Below, piece after piece: positions 28,076 through 64,000 of a DNA stretch of 64,000 nucleotides. The notes beneath the pieces were generated by a model. The model was not told the origin of the DNA. It did no database searches and saw nothing but the letters and a program-made list of their open reading frames with translations. Location: NCBI RefSeq assembly GCF_020497125.1, contig NC_059081.1, forward strand, positions 61,276,768-61,340,767. Reading direction: 5' to 3'. How positions within the stretch are numbered: the first letter of the stretch is position 1; each line of letters starts with the position of its first letter. This DNA is from Mauremys mutica (Eukaryota; Chordata; Testudines; Geoemydidae). A program made the position numbers and the translations under genes.

Positions 28076-28840
28076 CAGGGGTTGGCAAAATATGGCCTGT
28101 GGGCCAGATCCGGCCCATCTAACATTTCTGTCCAGCCCGCCATGACTAACATTTCTGTCCGGCCTCCTCTGCCCCCTTGCGATCTCTGAGTCCAGGCCGC
28201 TAAAAGTCCCGTGGCGCAGCAGGGTGCTCCGTCAGGCTGCCTGCCTACTGTGTCCCCACACTGCTCCCGGAAGCAGATGGCTGCTGCTGGCATGTCTCTG
28301 CGTACTCCTGGCGGGGTGGGGGGAAAGGTGGCCCTGCCCCTGTCCCCAGCACCATCCTCACAGCTCCCATTGGTCGGAAACTGGCCAATGGGAACTGCAG
28401 GAGCGGTGCTTGTGGCTGCAGGCAGCACATGGAGACCTGCTGCCGCACTCTCACCTAGGGGCGTGCAGAGATGTGTGTGATGTGCAGGAGTGGCATGGGG
28501 CTATGGCAGGCAGGCAGGCAGCCTCCTGAGCCCTGCTGTGCCGCCGGCTGGGAGCCACCTGTGGTAAGCGCCTCCCAGCCAGAGCATACACCTCGCACCC
28601 TCTCCCACACCCCAGTCCCCTGCCCCAGCCCGGAGCCCCCTCCTGCACCCAAACTCCCTCTCAGACCCCTCACCACCTCCTGCACCCCAGTCCCCTGCCC
28701 CAGCCCGGAGCCCCCTCCTGCACCCAAACTCCCTCTCAGACCCCTCACCACCTCCATTAATATAGCAGAAATGTGTGGCCTGTGACAACTTACCAAAATT
28801 CGTGGAATGGCCCCCCTGCAAAAATTATTGCCCACCCCTG
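28076..28840. mobile_element. hAT-type element with 75-bp internal tandem duplication
   Basis: A 765-bp GC-rich element starting CAGGGGTTGGCAAAATATGG and ending TTATTGCCCACCCCTG, imperfect inverted ends of the CAGGGGT(T/G)GGCAA type. Flanking octamers CTTTAGAC and ATTTAGAG agree at 6 of 8 positions, a decayed hAT TSD. Inside, a C-rich 75-bp unit is present twice in tandem (starting at about 28611 and 28686). The duplicated unit creates long open frames on both strands that look like repeat proteins but are not genes. Confidence 0.82.
28611..28756. repeat. 75-bp tandem duplication
   Basis: Two nearly identical copies, each starting CCCAGTCCCCTGCCCCAGCC, offset by 75 bp (25 codons). Because 75 is a multiple of three, each frame that is open through one copy stays open through the other. 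The high identity suggests a recent event within an older transposon. Confidence 0.85.
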
Positions 28841-31977: not shown

Positions 31978-33650
31978 TAGAATCATAGAAAATTAGGATT
32001 GGAAGAGACCTCAGGAGCAGGAGCAACCTCCAACTAAATCATCCCGCCAGGGCTTTGTCCTAATATCCAACCTAGACCTCCCCCACTGCAACTTGAGACC
32101 ATTGCTGCCACCATTGCTGCCACCATTGAGAACAGCCGCGCTCCATCCTCTTTGAAACTGCCCTTCAGATAATTGAAGGCTGCTATCAGATCCCCCCCTC
32201 ACTCTTCTCTTCTGCAGGCTAAACAAGCCCAGTTCCCTCAGCCTCTTCTCATAAGTCATGTGCCCCAGCCCCCTAATCATTTTTGTTGCCCTCCGCTGGA
32301 CTCTCTCCAATTTGTCCACATCCCTTCTGTAGTGGGGAGCCCAAAACTGGACACAATTTCTTTACCAGAAAAAGAGAGGAATAATCTCTTCCCTTGATCT
32401 GCTGGCAATGCTCCTACTAATGCAGCCCAATATGCCGTTAGCCTTCTTGGCAACAAGGGCACACCTGTTAACTCATATTCAGCTTCTCGTCCCCTGTAAT
32501 CCCCAGGTCCTTTTCTGCAAAACTGCCGCTTAGCCAGTCGGTCTCCAGCCTGTAGAAGTGCATGGGATTCTTCTGTCCTAAGTGCAGGACTCTGTACTTG
32601 TCCTTGTTGAACCTCATCAATTTTCTTTTAGTCCAGTCCTCCAATTTGTCCAGGTCACCCTGGACCCTATCCCTAACCTCCAGCTTATCTACCCCCGCCT
32701 CCCCCAGCTGAGTGTCATCTGTGAACTTGCGGAGGGTGCAATCCATCCCATCATCCAAATCATTAATGAAGATGTTGAACAAAACTGGGCCTGGAACAGA
32801 CCCCTGGGTCTTGATACTGACTGCCAACTAGACATCGAGCTGTTGATCATTACCCATTGAGCCTGATGATCTAGCCAGCTTTCTATCCATTTTATAGTCC
32901 ATTCATCCAATCCATACTTTATTGACTTGCTGGCAAGAATACTGTGGGAGATAGTATCAAAAGCTTTGCTTAAGTCAAGATGTGTCACATCCACCGCCAT
33001 CCCCATATCAACAGAGCCAGTTATCTCATCATAGAAGGCAGTTAGGTTGGTCAGGCATGACTTGCCCTTGGTGAATCCATGTTGACTGTTCCTGATCACC
33101 TTTCTCTCCTCCAAGTGCTTCAACATGGATTCCTTGAGGACCTGCTTCATAATTTTTCCAGGGACTAAGGTGATGCTGACTCGTCTCTAGTTCCCCGGAT
33201 TCTCCTCCTTCCCTTTTTTAAAGATGAGCACTATATATTTGTTCTTTTCCAATCATCCGGGACCTCCCCCGATCACCATGTGTTTTCAAAGATAATGGCC
33301 AATGGCTCTGCAGTCACATCAGCCAACTCCCTCAGCACCCTCGGATGCATTAGATCCAGACCCATGGACTTGTGCATGTCCAGCTTTCTTTCACCACTGA
33401 GGGCTGCTCACCTCCTCCCCATACTGTGCTGCTCAGTGCAGCAGTCTGGGAGCTGACCTTGTCTGAGAAGACCGAGGCAAAAAAGCATCTGAGTAGTTCA
33501 ACTTTTTCCACATAATCTGTCACTAGGTTGCCTCCCCCATTCAGTAATGGTCCCACACTTTCCCTGACAACCTTCTTGTTGCTAGATTGGCCTAATCTAG
33601 AACTGTAATTAACAATCTCAGTAATAGATCTATAGGACATTAATTTTAGT
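31978..33650 (-). mobile_element. CR1 LINE, 3' 1.7 kb, dead ORF2
   Basis: The + strand start AATAGAATCATAGAAAATTA is the reverse complement of the CR1 3' terminus. On the - strand, pieces translate as CR1 ORF2. 32689-33150 contains QHGFTKGKSCLTNL and DLSKAFDTISHS (reverse transcriptase fingers). 32468-32827 contains GSVPGPVLFNIFINDLDDG and KFTDDTQL (catalytic FADD changed to FTDD). 32011-32319 contains LERVQRRATKMIRG (C-terminus). 33350-33640 covers the upstream FFASVFSDK region. Frameshifts separate the pieces and the 5' part is missing, as is usual for CR1. Confidence 0.95.
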
Positions 33651-55418: not shown

Positions 55419-55497
55419 TGTGCTGATATTTAAAGTCTCCACTTTGTCGAAGAAAACTCAGTTCTCGCTTATGTTTAGGTGCAGCAAAAACAAATAC

Positions 55498-55503
55498 TTT
55501 ATT
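55498..55503 (-). terminator. retroviral poly(A) signal AATAAA
   Basis: Lies in TATTATAATAAAGTATTTG on the - strand, about 100 bp downstream of the LTR TATA box. Polyadenylation would be expected 15-25 bp further on and would define the R/U5 border. Confidence 0.75.
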
Positions 55504-55603
55504 ATAATACTCTAGTGAACACAAGAGGGAGAGAGTGTCAGGAACTGGGTTGCCCCTTGTCCTGAACAGATCTCTCTCAATTAGTAAAACAATCATAACA
55601 ATC

Positions 55604-55609
55604 TTTATA
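55604..55609 (-). promoter_or_regulatory. LTR TATA box
   Basis: TATAAA in AAGAAGGTATAAAGATTG on the - strand. Transcription from the 3' LTR would start near 55580 and run leftwards, towards and antisense to the 3' end of ADAM23. Confidence 0.7.
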
Positions 55610-55867
55610 CCTTCTTAACAGACAGTGGCTAGCAAACTTGCAGACAGTAAAAGTAAACATTTGCATTTGTTTATACATAAGCCTATTCATTATCTTATTT
55701 GTCTGCAATACCAGAACAGAAAACAAGACTGCAATTCACAAGGTCGTAACGACTTTTCACACAATTCACTCTGCACCAGATACAGGGTAACAGCTTAACC
55801 TCTGCTAATTAGCTAACATACATTAAGATCCCTTCAAACCTTTATTAATTAATTCTTGGCCTCCACA

Positions 55868-55878
55868 TTCCCCCTTTT
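55868..55878 (-). other. polypurine tract
   Basis: AAAAGGGGGAA on the - strand, touching the first base of the LTR (TGTGG). This is the plus-strand primer of reverse transcription and is of the usual class I form. env stops only about 23 bp upstream of it. Confidence 0.88.
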
Positions 55879-55901
55879 GTACTTCTAGTACAACAAATAC
55901 C

Positions 55902-56525
55902 TCAAATCTCAATTTGCATTAAACCATGGATTTCAGAGTCCACAGGAGACATCTCAACCTTAGGGGTTTTCATGGGATGTAAGGACAATGCATGATTAGC
56001 ATGAACATGAAAAGTAGTATTACTATCATTACGCCCTTTACAACAACAACAACAATAACATAATCCCACACCAACTAACAACACTACAAACAATAACATC
56101 CCCATAGGAATAAAATAATGGGGTTGTCGTACAGTTTTGGTAACAAAGCACAATACATCAAACTTAGTACATAAAGTAGAAACTCTATAAGCTGTATGAA
56201 AGGCATTCTGCTCAGCATGATATATATTCTGAAGCATGTGAATTTGCCCCTGCAACTCAGAGATTCTGCGAACCTCTGGCAACAATGAAAGCAAATTCTG
56301 AAAACGATCAGGTACTATCCTAGTCCAATTAAAATATACCTGAAATCTAAGAGCTACATGTAACATTCTATCTGCAGGCCAGTAAATAATATGATTGCCT
56401 GCAGCAGTGGTAAGATTAATATGTATATCTTGTAACGTGGTGGCATTAATGTACACACAGCTATCATTAGCCTGAAAAAGTGGGTGTCCTGTAAGGGTAG
56501 TCCCTTGACCTTTACCTCCCAGCAA
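55902..56525 (-). pseudogene. env: env, transmembrane subunit, C-terminal piece
   Basis: The third open piece of env, in the same frame as the first. It has several N-glycosylation sites (NDS, NAT, NLT, NWT) and a heptad-like stretch around ISELQGQIHMLQNIYHAEQN. A membrane span MGMLLFVVLLVGVGLC follows, then a run of cysteines (YCCCCC, a likely palmitoylation site), and a cytoplasmic tail of about 50 residues to a TGA codon. It is out of frame with the upstream piece near 56.5 kb. No CX6CC motif was seen. Confidence 0.8.
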
Positions 56526-57226
56526 ATATTGTCATAAACAGTGACAACTTCCCCTGGCTTCAGTTTCCGTATACACTGAAGCTGTGGTGGTTCTAACGGC
56601 CAAAATGTCCATAAATTCCCTAACCCCATCCAAATATCAGCTGTAATCCCAGGAGCACTAACTAAAAATCGATTAGGAGAAGCAGGTGGCCTGACTTCCC
56701 AGATATCTCGGTGAATCACCCAATCCCACATGCATCCTCCCCATGGACCCGGCAGGATTCGGTATGTGGGAGCCCACACCCCCTTAACCGGTCCATATGC
56801 TTGGAAGGAGCACTGTGAACGTCCACATTTCCATCCAGAAAGTCTCCAAGTATGTCTCCATGGCCACAGAGCAGATGGTACTCCTGACGTGTCTGTAAGG
56901 GCAGTGGGCCAAGCTTGGTGCACTAGATCATTCCGAATGGCCATCAGCTGGTCATTCAGGAAATCCTGAATTTCCGAACATGCTAGATCCCACTGCAATG
57001 CCTTCCCAGCTTCAGTTATATTCAGTACCATCTCTCTCAATAAATTCTGGGTCAGAGAACTAAGGGCGGAAATGACATGTAACTCACTCACCCCGGTTCG
57101 CACTTGTGTCAGCTGTGCCCCAGAAATCAGGCCAGTGGCCTTCTCTAATTGGCCCAATTTCTCATCATGCTCCTGGGTCTTAAAAATATTCCAAACAGCA
57201 GCTGCAGAATTGGCCCCATCCCACAA
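56354..57226 (-). pseudogene. env: env, transmembrane subunit, N-terminal piece (frame-shifted)
   Basis: The second open piece of env, in another frame. The frame is open upstream of the first Met and includes a furin-type site RKKR at 57242-57253, the expected surface/transmembrane cut. A heptad-rich segment follows (LEKATGLISGAQLTQ, then VISALSSLTQNLLREMVLNI). The useful part ends near 56.52 kb, where the coherent sequence moves to the other frame. The residues right after RKKR are not strongly hydrophobic, so a classical N-terminal fusion peptide is not evident. Confidence 0.8.
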
Positions 57227-57287
57227 GGATCCGGCTAGATCCCTCTTCTTTCTAGAGGAAATAACCCAGGCCCTCAGTTGTGCTAAT

Positions 57288-58484
57288 CTAATGGCAGCCC
57301 CTGGAACAATTTGGATATGTAGAGGTAATGTGAAAACTAGATAAAGGCAATGTAAACTTCACAGTCCCTAGTGTAGTGTTTAGTACAGTCCACCGATATT
57401 CTGGCACATATCCCCTCAGCGTAGGTCTATACCACATCTGTTGGTTGTAGACCTGCATATATTTCTGAGAGGCATTAATATCAATAGCATAAGAGGGAGT
57501 GTATTGCAATAAAGCACAAGTCACATTATCAGTCACTGGAATGGTCTCAAGACAGGTAAAATTTCCAGTAGTAGAACAAACTCTTTGGGTAGTCGTTTGA
57601 TTATTCACTAATTGGGTAACCAAATAACAATAAGGGCCTCTTTCAGGTAACATAGCACAAATTCCAGGAATAACCATCATATCTACTTCACTATGGAATC
57701 CATCAATTTCATATCTAAAGTCTAGGGGCTGATCTGCAGTAATATCATGGATCTCTATTGCCACTGATCCATTTGTTTTCCACTCAATGGTTCTCTCATA
57801 TGAAGTCTGTTGAACTTTAAAAAATAGGCTTTCTGAGCAATATTCTAATAAATCATTAAGATGGGAAGGTCTGGGCCAACGAATCTCATTAGAATATACA
57901 ATTTCGTTTACATCTGGATAAATTACAGAAGTGACGGCCAGGGTTGAGGGGCTAGTGGGGGTAACCTTTGTGGTAGCAAGGTGCTTTTGGTAGTCATTAT
58001 CTGAAAGCCAATTAGGGAGGGCAGTACATCCCCAGGGTACTTGTCCATAAGCACAGAGCCCTGCCCCTGGAAGAAATCCTAGCCACCATTGAACCCCACA
58101 CGCCCAAGCACGCTCCCCACAGTTCCCTCCTTGCCAATAAACGATGCTTCGTTTCTTCCACCAGGGCCAGTTCATAATGTCTCTTTTAGTCAGGAATCCC
58201 TGAACTCTGGAGGAGTTTGCAGAACGAATGTATCTTCTCCTCTTCCCCAAAAACAATCGTGCTCTAGCATGATAAAGGGAAGAGGGTTGTAATGTGGGAA
58301 TACCTTTAGAAAAATCCAAAGGCACAGTAGGTCCGTCAGAGGACAAGGGAGAGGTCACCAGTACGTCACCTTGTCCTCTTCTTCCGCTGTCCAGCAGGAA
58401 CAGCAGGGCTAGAAGAAGGAGCACGTTGATCATCAGTAGGTGTGGCCTCCCGAGGTGGAGGGGTCTTTTTGCAGTGCGATGCAT
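57288..58484 (-). pseudogene. env: env, surface subunit (398-codon piece)
   Basis: The first open piece of env. Its start overlaps the end of pol by 119 bp in another frame. A hydrophobic signal (residues about 17-32, MINVLLLLALLFLL) is present; the internal Met at its start is an alternative initiation site. It continues with several potential N-glycosylation sites (NSS, NGS, NQT, NFT, NVT, NAS, NTT, NCS) and about a dozen cysteines, typical of a surface glycoprotein. Two basic clusters (GKRRR, WKKRS) lie near residues 80-115. A TAG at 57288-57290 ends this frame before the furin site, so env is interrupted here. Confidence 0.85.
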
Positions 58485-61400
58485 GGGTCCAGGCAGGTAG
58501 TCCTTGACACTTCACAGCAGTGTTGGTAGTCAACAGGACTTGGAAAGGGCCTTTCCAGCGTGGAGCCAGGGCAGTCTTTCGTTGATGGACCTTTATGTAG
58601 ACCCAGTCTCCCGGTTCCAACGAGTGGCAAGGTTGCACAGGATCCTTCGGTAAGGCTTCCTTCACCTGTGTATAAAAAGACTTAACACATTTCATTAGTG
58701 CCTGACAATACTTAAGCATTATGTCATCCATCAAATGAATGTCCATCTGAGCTAAGGTCAGTGGGGGTGCAGTTGGTAGTCGCATTGGGCGCCCCGTCAA
58801 AATCTCATGAGGGCTGAGTCCAGTCTTTCGATTGGGAATGGCTCTCATACTCATCAGTGCCAATGGAAGGGCATCTGGCCACTTTAAGTTCGTTTCAGCA
58901 CAAATCTTGGCCAGTTTATTTTTTAAAATCCCGTTCTGGCGTTCCACTGTCCCAGCAGATTGTGGGTGATGAGGGCAGTGAAGGTTGTGTTGGATCTGCA
59001 AAGTTGTACATAACTCCTTTACAATCTGTCCAGTAAAGTGAGTTCCACGATCACTGTTGATACTCACAGGAATGCCAAAACGAGGGACAAAATCCTTAAG
59101 CAGAAGTTTCACAACAGTCCTGGCATCTGCCTTCCTGCAGGGAAAAGCTTCAACCCAATTGGTAAATACATCAACTAAAACCAATACATATTCATAACCA
59201 CAACATTTAGACATTTGAATAAAATCAATCTGAATATTTACAAAAGGTCCCCAAGGAGGAGGGTGGGCTGCTCGCATAGCTTTAACAGCTTTACCAATGT
59301 TGTGTTGTTGACAAATCACACAGTGTTGACAGTAGGAATGGGCAACAGAAGGGAAAATGGGTGCAAACCAATCTCGGGCAACTGCAGCAACCATCCCCCC
59401 TTTGCTCACGTGTGCCATCCCATGGTATATGCGAGCAAGATAGGGCAATAACATCTTTGGTGCCACCAGGCGACCATCCGGGGCACGCCAAAGATTATCA
59501 GAATGTAAAATGCAGCCAGCAGCACTCCAAGAGTGCTTCTCAGTTCTTGATGTTGCCTCCTGGATCTTAGCCAGATCGTCAAGGGAGGCCAGTGAAGGCT
59601 GCTCTATCAGTACACAGGAATGTACAGCCTGAGGTGCAGAAAGAGCCGCTGTCCTAGCTGCAGAGTCAGCTAGAGCATTCCCACGGGTAACTTCATCATG
59701 AGGGGTCTTGTGAGCAGTACATTTAACAACAGCTATAGCTTTAGGCAACAAAAGAGCATCCAAAAGAGCAGAAACATAAAAACCATTCTTAATAGGAGAA
59801 CCAGTGGATGTAAGGAAGCCTCTATATTTCCAAAGCAATCCAAAATCATGAACCACTCCAAAAGCATAACGAGAATCCGTATAGATAGTGACCGTTTGAT
59901 CTCTAGCCAGAACACAAGCTCGAGTCAAAGCCACAAGTTCAGCTACTTGAGAGGAAAACACTGAAGAAAGGAAAGCACTCTCAACAACAGCACAGGTAGT
60001 GCAGACAGCATAACCAGCAACTAATGTACCCTTAGAATCTCGCAAGCACGAGCCATCCACAAAATAAAGGAGATCAGGATTCTGCAAAGGCACATCCAGT
60101 AAATCATCTCTAGGACGAGTAAGAACAGACGTTACAAACACACAATCATGTGGGGTTCCATCTTCAGGCCCAGGCAACAAAGAGGCTGGATTAAGAACAG
60201 GGCAACGAGCCAAAGTAATATGAGAGGAAGAAAGCAAAACCAGTTCATATTTGATAAGACGAGAAGCGGATAAATGCTGCGTCCTAGATTTCAACAAGAG
60301 TGCACCCACAGCATGCGGAACACACACACTCAAAGGAGAACCCAATACAATAGATGCAGATAACTGAACAGAAAGGGCCGTTGCCGCTACAGCCCGTAAA
60401 CAAGGGGAAAATCCTACCGCCACAGCGTCTAAGGCAGTACTGTAGTAGGCAATTGGACGGTGTTTGTCCCCGTGCTTTTGCGTTAGTACAGCCAAAGCAA
60501 ACCCATTACGCTCATGACAGAAAAGAGTAAATGGTTTAGTATAATCAGGAAGTCCCAGGGCCGGAGCAGTAGATAGTCTCTGTTTAATAGCAACAAAAGC
60601 ACTCTCAGCCTCTGGGGGCCAAGGAAGAGGTTCAGGGGTACCAGACTTAGTCAGATCCTGTAAGGGTTTAATCACTGTTGCATAACCTAAAATCCACTGC
60701 CTGCAATATCCAGTCATGCCCAGAAAAGTACGCATGTGAGAAACAGTACTAGGCCTAGGCATATTTAAAATAGCTGAAATACGAGAGTCTGATAAATGAC
60801 GCTTGCCATGAGAAATATCATGACCAAGATAATGAACCTTGGGTTGACACAGTTGGAGTTTTTCTCGGGATGCTTTGTGACCTTTGGCAGCTAAAGCAGT
60901 TAAAAGAGTCAGAGTATCAGTTTTAGAAGAGTCAAAAGAGAAAGACGCCAGTAAAAGGTCATCCACATATTGTATAAGTACTGATTTTCCAGGGAAAACC
61001 ACATCATCCAGATCCTTCTTCAGGATCTGAGAAAACAGGGAGGGAGATTCAGTATACCCTTGGGGTAACCTGGTCCAGGTATACTGACATCCTTTATAAG
61101 TAAAGGCAAACAAATACTGACTATCTGGGTGAATTGGAATGGAAAAAAAGGCTGAACACAAATCTACAACAGAGAAATAAGTGGCTGACGGTGGAATACA
61201 AGAAAAAATTGTAGCTGGATTTGGAACCACTGGAAAAGAAGGCAAAACCACAGCATTAATAGCGCGAAGGTCTTGAACAAACCGATAGGTATTCCTTCCT
61301 GGCTTCTTTACAGGAAAGATAGGAGTATTACAAGAACTAATAGTGGGAATAATAATACCCTGTTGCAATAAAGATTCTATAACCGGAGCTATGCCTGCCA

Positions 61401-62010
61401 CTGCTTCAGGACGCAGTGGGTACTGTGGAATCCTTGGCAAAAGCTTAGCAGGGTCCACAAGAATTTTAACCAGCTCGGCTGTTCTAATCTGTCCCACTTC
61501 ATTTGCATGACGAGACCAGAGATGGGGGGGCACTTGTGACAACAAATGCACAAGGTCAGGGCTGAGTGGAGACTTCGACGCAGCTGGCTCGGATATATGG
61601 AGTGTAGCCAACACCAGGTTAGTATTCTCATCAGGAACCTGTAAGAATACGCCATCTGGTGTACAGTAGATGGTACAACCTAATTTACACAACAGATCTC
61701 TTCCCAGCAAATTCACAGGAGAAGTAGAACTGAGTAGAAAGGAATGTTTATCTTCTAGAGGGCCAAGACAAATGTCAAGGGGTACTGAGACAGGATGCGA
61801 AACAGGACAGTTTGAAATGCCCACAGCATTAACAGACAAAGCGGACAAAGGAACAGAGGGAAACTCCGAGGATCTCAGAGCAGACCTACTAGCCCCAGTG
61901 TCTACAAGACAAGTAACAGATTTACCAGCAATATTACAATCAACAAACGGGCCTTCTCGATTAATAGAAATTAAAGGATTCATGATGCAGTTACGTTCCC
62001 TCAGGCTGTC
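58366..62010 (-). CDS. pol: pro-pol: protease, reverse transcriptase, RNase H, integrase
   Basis: One uninterrupted frame from the codon after the gag amber to 58366 (1,215 codons). Numbering from the first Met (61983): protease DTGA at 28-31. Reverse transcriptase has D274, LPQG at 306-309 and YVDD at 339-342. RNase H has D643, E682, D703 and D773. The integrase zinc module has H854, H858, C885 and C888, with catalytic D920, D978 and E1014 (35 residues between the last two). A C-terminal WKGPFQVLLTT module is of gammaretroviral GPY/F type. All catalytic residues looked for are present. It is probably made as a Gag-Pol fusion by stop readthrough. It overlaps the start of env. Confidence 0.97.
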   Translation of the reverse strand, partial: DSLRERNCIMNPLISINREGPFVDCNIAGKSVTCLVDTGASRSALRSSEFPSVPLSALSVNAVGISNCPVSHPVSVPLDICLGPLEDKHSFLLSSTSPVNLLGRDLLCKLGCTIYCTPDGVFLQVPDENTNLVLATLHISEPAASKSPLSPDLVHLLSQVPPHLWSRHANEVGQIRTAELVKILVDPAKLLPRIPQYPLRPEAVAGIAPVIESLLQQGIIIPTISSCNTPIFPVKKPGRNTYRFVQDLRAINAVVLPSFPVVPNPATIFSCIPPSATYFSVVDLCSAFFSIPIHPDSQYLFAFTYKGCQYTWTRLPQGYTESPSLFSQILKKDLDDVVFPGKSVLIQYVDDLLLASFSFDSSKTDTLTLLTALAAKGHKASREKLQLCQPKVHYLGHDISHGKRHLSDSRISAILNMPRPSTVSHMRTFLGMTGYCRQWILGYATVIKPLQDLTKSGTPEPLPWPPEAESAFVAIKQRLSTAPALGLPDYTKPFTLFCHERNGFALAVLTQKHGDKHRPIAYYSTALDAVAVGFSPCLRAVAATALSVQLSASIVLGSPLSVCVPHAVGALLLKSRTQHLSASRLIKYELVLLSSSHITLARCPVLNPASLLPGPEDGTPHDCVFVTSVLTRPRDDLLDVPLQNPDLLYFVDGSCLRDSKGTLVAGYAVCTTCAVVESAFLSSVFSSQVAELVALTRACVLARDQTVTIYTDSRYAFGVVHDFGLLWKYRGFLTSTGSPIKNGFYVSALLDALLLPKAIAVVKCTAHKTPHDEVTRGNALADSAARTAALSAPQAVHSCVLIEQPSLASLDDLAKIQEATSRTEKHSWSAAGCILHSDNLWRAPDGRLVAPKMLLPYLARIYHGMAHVSKGGMVAAVARDWFAPIFPSVAHSYCQHCVICQQHNIGKAVKAMRAAHPPPWGPFVNIQIDFIQMSKCCGYEYVLVLVDVFTNWVEAFPCRKADARTVVKLLLKDFVPRFGIPVSINSDRGTHFTGQIVKELCTTLQIQHNLHCPHHPQSAGTVERQNGILKNKLAKICAETNLKWPDALPLALMSMRAIPNRKTGLSPHEILTGRPMRLPTAPPLTLAQMDIHLMDDIMLKYCQALMKCVKSFYTQVKEALPKDPVQPCHSLEPGDWVYIKVHQRKTALAPRWKGPFQVLLTTNTAVKCQGLPAWTHASHCKKTPPPREATPTDDQRAPSSSPAVPAGQRKKRTR

Positions 62011-62013
62011 CTA
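62011..62013 (-). promoter_or_regulatory. gag-pol amber codon, predicted readthrough site
   Basis: TAG, followed by G, separates gag from a downstream frame that is the same frame and stays open through all of pol; the first pol Met is 27 bp further on. In gammaretroviruses this codon is suppressed a few per cent of the time to make Gag-Pol. A downstream pseudoknot would be expected, but I could not fold it here. Confidence 0.85.
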
Positions 62014-63591
62014 GTAAGGGGTTCCTTGTGGGGAGAAAACAGGCGCTTCAGGATTGGGGAACTGAGTAGGATTTTGAGCAAATCGATTTGGACACTCATT
62101 TCTCCAGTGTCCCTCCTGACCACACAAGTGGCATGCAGTGCTCCCAGTCGGGGCAGGATTCTGGGCAGGATATGAGGAACCTCGTCCCATACCTCTCCCA
62201 CGACCTCGTCCCCGTCCTCTTCTCAGTCCCCCACGACCCCTATTCTGATAAGTTTGTAACTGTAAAGCCATAAGTTTTGTTTCACTGGTTTCTTTCTTCT
62301 GGTCTATGCAAGCTGTACAATGATTTGCAACTGTCACCAATTCTGAAAGGGGTTTAGTTTGCCAGCCAATACAAATAGTTCTCAATGGTTGCTGAACTTT
62401 CGGCAAGAGTCCCTGAACAAAAGCAGCTCCCACCGCTTCCCTGGCATTATCAGCTGGATCAGTAATTCCCGAATGCTGTTCAAAGACCTTAGTCAGTCTA
62501 TCAAGATAATCAGCAGGGGATTCTCCCGTATTTTGTTTACAATTTGCAATCTTGGTCCAATCTGTTTTCTTAGGACAAACTTCTGAAATAGAGGTCAAGA
62601 GACGATTCCTAGCCTCTGTCAAAGCATCCCCAATACCAGGGTCGGCATCAGGCCAAGCCGCCTGTCTGTTAAGGCGTTGCTGTACTTCGGCGGGCAGTAC
62701 AGCTCGTAAAAGTTGATTAATATCTGCCCAAGATGGATTATAGCACTGAATCACTGTCTGGAGCTCTTCTCTAAACTTTACTGGCTCCTCCCTGATTTTA
62801 GGAAATTCTTTCACCATGTTTCTAAGATCTCCAGGTGTCCACGGGGCATGTACCTTAATTAACCCCCCTATCGCTCCAGCTCCAGGCAAGTCCCTTAAAG
62901 GAGCCTGGAGTGCCTGTGTCGTGCTTCTAAGAAAGTAGCCGGCATGGTTATCAGCAGAAGCAGGGTTAACCGGACTACTGGTGTCAGTCAGTAGGGAAGA
63001 AGATAATTCTTCCGAAGAAGGAGAATGAACAACTTGTGCAGTTGATAATTGCGGCGACGAAACAATTACTGCCTGCACAGCCCGAGAAGGGGGGGCCGAG
63101 GGGGAAGCCTGCTGCGGCTGTGGAATGCTGCTAAAAAAAAAATCCACTATATCTTCTGTAGTCTCCTCCTCACTTTCAGGTTTAACTAATTGAGGATAAA
63201 GAGAAGCAGAGGGCTGCACTGAAGCAGGAAGACATTTGGATGTCTGACATTTAAGTTTTAAATCTTGTACTTCAGTTTTTAATTTCTCCTGGGAGTCCTT
63301 CAGACTCCGCACCCGAGACTCATGGAGTCTCTTTGTTGCTTCCTCCCACCAAGACAGAAACTGCTCGCACTGCGCAGCAGAGGTGTGTGATTTAAGGGCT
63401 TCACGGAGGCATGTAAGTTTATCTAACTCAAAGGTACCTTCTAATGGGCATTGTTTAAATGAATTTTCACGCGTGTACAGATTCCAATCATTTAAATACC
63501 TGCAGGTTTTAGGACCATAATGTACGTACATGTAATATGCTGGGGTACCCTTAGGGGGTAAAGTGGAAAGTTTAGACTGTTCCCCCCCCAT
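62011..63591 (-). CDS. gag: gag polyprotein
   Basis: 526 codons ending at an amber TAG (62011-62013). The N-terminus MGGEQSK has a Gly2 myristoylation signal. A charged, coiled-coil-like stretch is at about 93-115 (ESRVRSLKDSQEKLKTEVQD). A PSAP late-domain motif is at 164-167. The capsid major-homology-like region is near 352-376 (TGESPADYLDRL), followed by an RG-rich segment at about 451-471 and one zinc knuckle CX2CX4HX4C at 487-500. One knuckle plus the late domain and readthrough stop fit gamma-like Gag. No internal stop. The start is the first in-frame ATG after the leader. Confidence 0.95.
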   Translation of the reverse strand: MGGEQSKLSTLPPKGTPAYYMYVHYGPKTCRYLNDWNLYTRENSFKQCPLEGTFELDKLTCLREALKSHTSAAQCEQFLSWWEEATKRLHESRVRSLKDSQEKLKTEVQDLKLKCQTSKCLPASVQPSASLYPQLVKPESEEETTEDIVDFFFSSIPQPQQASPSAPPSRAVQAVIVSSPQLSTAQVVHSPSSEELSSSLLTDTSSPVNPASADNHAGYFLRSTTQALQAPLRDLPGAGAIGGLIKVHAPWTPGDLRNMVKEFPKIREEPVKFREELQTVIQCYNPSWADINQLLRAVLPAEVQQRLNRQAAWPDADPGIGDALTEARNRLLTSISEVCPKKTDWTKIANCKQNTGESPADYLDRLTKVFEQHSGITDPADNAREAVGAAFVQGLLPKVQQPLRTICIGWQTKPLSELVTVANHCTACIDQKKETSETKLMALQLQTYQNRGRGGLRRGRGRGRGRGMGRGSSYPAQNPAPTGSTACHLCGQEGHWRNECPNRFAQNPTQFPNPEAPVFSPQGTPY

Positions 63592-64000
63592 GTTCCAGTC
63601 ACACCAACTGAAGGGGTCCCTGTCCGCGCTAGCGGACCAGAATCTAAGAATCCCTCCCTACAGGGCACTCACGTACAGGAGAGACTCACAAGAAAGACTA
63701 CGACCCTCGTACATCTCCTTTCAGCAAAGAGCGTCGGCTAAAGACTCCATTTCCGGGAGATAAACCCGCATACTCTAATTGCATCCAGGGAGACGATCAG
63801 ATTGTCAGTAGCCCACACAGAAGGGAAAGGAGGGAAAATGGGTTCACACACTCCTAGACCCAGGCAGCTTCCTCGCCGGACTATGCCAAGCTGAGTCAGC
63901 CCACCGTGGGTCGGATCTCCTAAAGATCCACTAGTTACTGGGCTTGCGTTAGACTACTCCTGATCATTAGCAATCGCTTCACAGGGCAATCTGGGCGTCT
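63592..64000 (-). other. retroviral 5' leader (partial)
   Basis: At least 409 bp upstream of gag without LTR sequence, so the leader is over 400 bp long. Two GTGAGT words on the - strand (around 63667-63672 and 63683-63688) are candidate splice donors for the env mRNA. No primer-binding site or 5' LTR end is visible before the window ends. This stretch should hold the packaging signal, but I could not identify it. Confidence 0.7.

What the first reader, a model, noticed from the sequence alone, without database searches (positions are those of the whole stretch)
61983..62011. Gag and Pol in one frame across a single amber codon, both fully open
The gag stop is TAG. The next codons in the same frame are open straight into pol (27 bp to the first Met) and on for 1,215 codons with all catalytic residues I could check. 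That is the gammaretroviral readthrough design, still intact in a host genome. Over about 5.2 kb there is no other stop, so the insertion is probably young or purged of damage.
Basis: partly seen in the sequence, partly recalled or inferred. Interest (0 to 1): 0.75.

Follow-up and report, generated by a model that had tools for sequence, protein, structure and literature searches.

The report
Turtle retrovirus relic with readthrough stop
This is an old viral insertion in what looks like a turtle genome, whose core and enzyme genes share one reading frame split by a single stop signal, a layout already known from related retroviruses, and whose envelope gene is broken.

Summary
On the minus strand gag (62011-63591, 526 aa) ends in TAG at 62011-62013, and the same frame stays open for 1,214 codons of pol (58366-62010), with all 13 motif patterns I looked for. 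The interpretation needs correcting. (1) In RT trees the element groups with turtle and unnamed sequences, outside the side that holds the one named gammaretrovirus (p-AU 5e-6). Gag's only long relatives are turtle and coelacanth. This fits the published epsilon-like lineage of CoeERV1-1 and turtle/crocodile ERVs (PMC4255032, passages). (2) No compact MLV-like pseudoknot was found after the TAG. A published survey found one in all its gammaretroviruses but none in WDSV or SnRV, also readthrough viruses (PMC3835772, passages). (3) Env lies in three overlapping frames, so its frame is lost at least twice. "Young" is not shown: the 5' LTR is outside the window and 9 of 9 genome calls did not complete. 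Best reading: a new copy of a known kind of class I ERV whose ancestor made Gag-Pol by readthrough. Readthrough itself is inferred.

The parts
62011..63591 (-). gag ORF, 526 aa, stop included; Gag_p30, glycine-arginine-rich stretch, one zinc knuckle
62011..62013 (-). TAG stop between gag and pol
61984..62010 (-). nine open in-frame codons between the TAG and the first pol Met
58366..62010 (-). pol frame, 1,214 codons plus stop, same frame as gag
61669..61953 (-). protease domain (RVP, pol residues 20-114)
   Evidence: coordinates converted by hand
60817..61311 (-). reverse transcriptase domain (RVT_1, residues 234-398)
   Evidence: coordinates converted by hand
59644..60072 (-). RNase H domain (residues 647-789)
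   Evidence: coordinates converted by hand
58963..59235 (-). integrase core (rve, residues 926-1016)
   Evidence: coordinates converted by hand
58462..58626 (-). integrase C-terminal domain (MLVIN_C, residues 1129-1183)
   Evidence: coordinates converted by hand
57288..58484 (-). env, first open frame from its ATG (398 aa): hydrophobic leader and surface part; overlaps the end of pol
56354..57358 (-). env, second open frame (334 aa) with RKKR furin-like site; frame lost against the first
55902..56531 (-). env, third open frame (209 aa) with a hydrophobic anchor-like stretch; frame lost against the second
55868..55880 (-). polypurine tract before the 3' LTR (read by eye)
55445..55867 (-). 3' LTR, 423 bp, TG...CA; TATA box 55604-55609 and AATAAA 55498-55503 the likeliest of two matches each; outer edge inferred
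63592..64000 (-). 5' leader, cut by the window end; no LTR match in it

Best explanation
A provirus of an epsilon-like class I endogenous retrovirus (the turtle/crocodile/coelacanth lineage that includes CoeERV1-1) in a turtle genome, minus strand. Its ancestor made Gag from the full-length RNA, and Gag-Pol when a fraction of ribosomes put an amino acid at the gag UAG and read on in the same frame into protease-RT-RNase H-integrase; Env came from a spliced RNA. Shown: the layout, the open gag and pol frames, the motifs, the RT position relative to MLV, the broken env. Inferred: that readthrough occurs, the turtle host, the epsilon label (from published trees; no epsilonretrovirus was in mine), the LTR's outer edge, the env splicing. 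What lets ribosomes pass the UAG is unknown; no compact MLV-like pseudoknot was found.
For: Open in-frame gag/TAG/pol. RT groups with Chelydra (100/99) and then Terrapene and an unnamed sequence (99/99); placing the window with the MLV side costs 77 log-likelihood units, p-AU 5.3e-6 (that side was picked). Gag hits: 5, of which hawksbill 67%, coelacanth 47% over 98%, partial Chelydra and leatherback, and one knuckle-only match. Coelacanth and hawksbill gags end 28 and 29 residues after the knuckle (my count), 26 here. Coelacanth CoeERV1-1 is published as Epsilon-group and close to turtle and crocodile ERVs (PMC4255032, passages). WDSV and SnRV are in-frame readthrough viruses without a detected pseudoknot (PMC3835772, passages).
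Against: No readthrough was measured and no signal found. In 15 of the 120 listed pol relatives gag and pol content sit in one annotated protein, and 4 salamander proteins run from knuckle to protease with no stop, so fused frames may exist in kin. One turtle pol (Lepidochelys, 50%) lies elsewhere in the tree. Which ERV the coelacanth gag belongs to was not checked.
Confidence: 0.72

Rival explanations
1. Pol is made from its own AUG (61981-61983), from a spliced RNA or by reinitiation, and the TAG is an ordinary stop.
For: The first Met lies 27 residues before the protease DTG, so a pol begun there would hold a whole protease. No stimulatory structure was found.
Against: Pol shares the gag frame with nine open codons before the Met, which an own start does not require. 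In the 2 relatives checked the first Met stands 21 and 13 residues before DTG, not 27; these are database start calls, so weak.
Confidence: 0.1
2. The TAG is a nonsense lesion in an ancestral fused gag-pol frame of this one copy.
For: The same provirus has lost the env frame. 15 of 120 listed pol relatives also match this gag in one annotated protein; 5 of the 28 with the protease motif have a knuckle before it in the same protein.
Against: Coelacanth and hawksbill gags also end 28-29 residues after the knuckle. The salamander joint is built differently: 157-158 residues from knuckle to protease motif in 4 of 4, against 61 here with the stop. Gene models can splice a stop away.
Confidence: 0.08
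3. A true gammaretrovirus-type element whose UAG is suppressed through a downstream pseudoknot that my scans missed.
For: Gag_p30 and MLVIN_C hits; capsid part matches MLV p30 structures. With loose limits the scanner gives a wide knot of -8 to -9.5 on a crude scale. In MLV the active knot is a minor conformer (PMC4178896, passage).
Against: RT outside the MLV side; 5 of 5 fold windows less stable than their shuffle mean; no compact knot while 100 of 100 planted ones were found; no Rfam readthrough family.
Confidence: 0.05

Closest known systems
CoeERV1-1 of the coelacanth and its turtle and crocodile relatives (PMC4255032, passages)
   Same: Epsilon-group class I ERV with gag, pol, env and LTRs of similar size; the closest long non-turtle gag found is from coelacanth
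   Different: LTR 475 nt against 423 here; whether its gag stop is the same, and whether the coelacanth protein found is CoeERV1-1, was not tested
[quoted passage not shown]
   Same: gag and pol in one frame divided by a stop; no pseudoknot detected after it
   Different: exogenous fish viruses; no sequence of theirs was compared here
Murine leukaemia virus, Gammaretrovirus
   Same: in-frame UAG, same pol domain order, related capsid and RT
   Different: pol 38% identical, other side of the RT tree, compact pseudoknot and gamma-type Env not found here
XtERV-S of African frogs (PMC8278194, passages)
   Same: gag and pol in one frame divided by a stop codon
   Different: its stop is TGA and it is class III with a class I env

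Membership tests
Gammaretrovirus | gag and pol in one frame across a UAG | tested here: met
   shared with epsilonretroviruses
Gammaretrovirus | compact pseudoknot after the gag stop | tested here: not met
   crude energies, and 52 of 100 random 90-mers also lack a knot
Gammaretrovirus | RT inside the gammaretroviral clade | tested here: not met
   MLV is the only named gammaretrovirus in the trees
Gammaretrovirus | gamma-type Env with CX6CC in TM and CXXC in SU | tested here: not met
   no CX6CC in any of 3 frames; CXXC only in the cysteine run after the anchor. Frames are broken, so a motif at a break could be lost. Definition from PMC9967133, passages
Epsilon-like class I ERV (CoeERV1-1 lineage) | RT and integrase group with Epsilon viruses and with turtle, crocodile and coelacanth ERVs | tested here: inconclusive
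   groups with turtle sequences; no WDSV, SnRV or CoeERV1-1 pol was on hand; gag kin in coelacanth
Epsilon-like class I ERV (CoeERV1-1 lineage) | in-frame gag stop without a detected pseudoknot, as in WDSV and SnRV | tested here: met
Spumavirus | pol in a different frame from gag with its own start | tested here: not met
   pol shares the gag frame; use of the pol AUG was not testable. Definition from PMC8278194, passage

The most novel reading that the evidence does not exclude
A turtle/coelacanth retrovirus lineage passes an amber stop to make Gag-Pol without any pseudoknot, by a signal not yet described, and carries an Env type with no Pfam or PDB relative by sequence.
Probability: 0.3. Interest if true: 0.45.

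Novelty: new member of a known kind. Interest (0 to 1): 0.22.

Why it matters
It is one more well-kept gag-pol of an ERV lineage that seems to have moved between reptiles and coelacanths, and a clean case for asking how epsilon-like retroviruses pass the gag stop without the pseudoknot that gammaretroviruses use. The layout itself is textbook; its value is as a test item for a known open point, not as a new system.

Tried and rejected
MLV-like pseudoknot: folded 5 windows around the stop, scanned Rfam (that Rfam holds readthrough-site families is recalled), and wrote an H-type knot scanner (control and looser limits). No support. The scanner's energies are crude. 300 of 300 shuffles and 300 of 300 other TAG sites score 'as good' simply because the real site scores zero, and 52 of 100 random 90-mers have no knot either, so absence alone is unremarkable.

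DNA of relatives: two scans of IMG/VR gave nothing (1 and 71 pattern matches, none confirmed). Sister joints could be seen only as proteins.

LTR age and copy number: the genome search 'own' did not complete in 9 of 9 tries. No 5' LTR match in the 409 nt of leader held.

Env typing: no Pfam family above noise (one Prominin match at E 0.05), no PDB match below E 0.1. Two AlphaFold jobs gave mean pLDDT 32.0 and 31.4, too poor for a fold search, so none was run.

'NYNRIN-like' in many hit names was rejected as a host-gene reading, because the listed domains are protease/RT/RNase H/integrase. Selection on gag-pol was rejected as unproven (0.11).

Full report
Observation. The feature lies on the minus strand. 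Gag runs 63591 to 62011 (526 aa) and stops with TAG at 62011-62013. The same frame then stays open for 1,214 codons to a stop at 58366-58368, with the first ATG after 27 nt. In 200 single-base shuffles of the pol DNA the longest open run was 192 codons, and pol and gag are the two longest open runs of the window. Pol carries protease, RT, RNase H, integrase core and an MLV-type integrase C-terminal domain; gag carries Gag_p30 and one zinc knuckle. All 13 motif patterns I looked for in pol are present.

What surrounds it. Behind pol come three overlapping open frames with env content (57288-58511, 56354-57358, 55902-56531). The first has a hydrophobic leader and a surface-like part, the second an RKKR site, the third a hydrophobic anchor-like stretch. 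Three turtle relatives that span the first overlap read on without a break there, so the frame loss is a defect of this copy or an assembly error. A polypurine tract and a 423-bp 3' LTR follow, its outer edge inferred. The window ends in the 5' leader; the 409 nt held show no LTR match.

What it is related to. Pol: 409 proteins at E 1e-3, the best 120 listed. The closest named ones are Malaclemys (87% over 65%) and Chelydra (77% over 58%); Rauscher MLV is 38%. I chose 60 of the 120 for an RT tree and 2 fell out as too short. The window pairs with Chelydra, then with Terrapene and an unnamed sequence; a side of 13 rows with MLV, four birds, alligator, geckos, anole, two bats and wombat excludes it. 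In a careful tree of 31 relatives the same four-row set has support 99/99, and forcing the window into the MLV side costs 77 log-likelihood units, p-AU 5.3e-6 (that side was picked, which weakens the p). A wider five-row group with a further unnamed sequence was counted only against the MLV side, 17 other rows being left out of that count, so I make no claim for it. Gag: 5 hits, namely hawksbill 67%, coelacanth 47% over 98%, partial Chelydra and leatherback proteins, and one knuckle-only match. Env first frame: 5 hits, all turtle; longer Envs could not be candidates under the tool's length limit. The host is therefore inferred to be a turtle; RT pieces of a LINE in the window (the name CR1 is recalled) fit. 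No named epsilonretrovirus was in my trees. The epsilon label comes from print: CoeERV1-1 of the coelacanth clusters in the Epsilon group next to turtle and crocodile ERVs (PMC4255032, passages; repeated in PMC4977317, passages).

The stop codon. Gamma- and epsilonretroviruses use in-frame readthrough; a survey found downstream pseudoknots in all its gammaretroviruses but none after the gag stop of walleye dermal sarcoma virus or snakehead retrovirus (PMC3835772, passages). In MLV the knot follows an 8-nt spacer (PMC4178896, passages). Here 5 of 5 fold windows were less stable than their shuffle mean (z +0.92 to +1.75). Rfam gives no readthrough family at E 10 (one unrelated snoRNA match). My knot scanner finds none within compact limits although it finds 100 of 100 planted artificial knots. 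Against weight on this: 52 of 100 random 90-mers also lack a knot, and with loose limits a wide knot is reported. The joint looks like the epsilon case, not the gamma case. That readthrough happens is inferred from the layout and from kin; what promotes it is unknown to me.

Rivals. An own start for pol is not excluded: the first Met would leave a whole protease, but it does not stand at the same place in the 2 relatives checked. A nonsense lesion in a fused frame is less likely, because coelacanth and hawksbill gags end at about the same distance from the knuckle (28 and 29 residues by my count; 26 here). Told against me: the last residues of the hawksbill protein differ and may come from a gene model; 15 of 120 listed pol relatives also match gag in one annotated protein; and 4 salamander proteins run from knuckle to protease motif without a stop over 157-158 residues, 1 lizard protein over 31. 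Gene models can hide a stop, so this is weak either way.

Age. 'Young or purged' is not shown. Env has lost its frame at least twice. If two lesions fall evenly over 7,690 nt, both land in env with probability 0.11. LTR divergence could not be measured: 9 of 9 genome calls were unanswered.

Literature. Searches listed no title, and the passages I read held no text, describing this element; only open-licence papers are held, so this is no proof of absence. Xu et al. 2018 name turtles as transmission hubs (PMC6001957, passages). A 2023 survey counts turtles among hosts of ongoing ERV invasion (PMC10435555, passages). XtERV-S of frogs also has an in-frame gag stop (PMC8278194, passages). The crocodilian paper groups some ERV1 families loosely, with weak support, with turtle and coelacanth ones (PMC4299795, passages). 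A zebrafish ERV paper was also looked at and gave nothing on the stop (PMC8672886, passages).

Verdict. A real, ordinary provirus of a known kind.

Noticed in passing
55902-58511, minus strand: Env content in three overlapping frames with no Pfam family and no PDB match by sequence; hits to the first frame are turtle proteins only (5 of 5).
   Followed up: partly
protein P0127: A coelacanth gag is 47% identical over 98% of this turtle gag, the only long non-turtle gag hit; fits the published reptile-coelacanth link.
   Followed up: partly
proteins P0006, P0010, P0056, P0062: Salamander relatives are annotated with gag and pol in one protein, with 157-158 residues rich in glutamine, methionine and proline between knuckle and protease motif.
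   Followed up: no
window 32471-33186, minus strand: Two overlapping RT pieces of a LINE in different frames (the second just under Pfam's cut-off).
   Followed up: partly
window 28608-28755: Two exact head-to-tail copies of a 75-bp unit.
   Followed up: no
protein P0008: A second turtle pol (Lepidochelys kempii, 50%) lies in another part of the RT tree, so turtles carry more than one such lineage.
   Followed up: no
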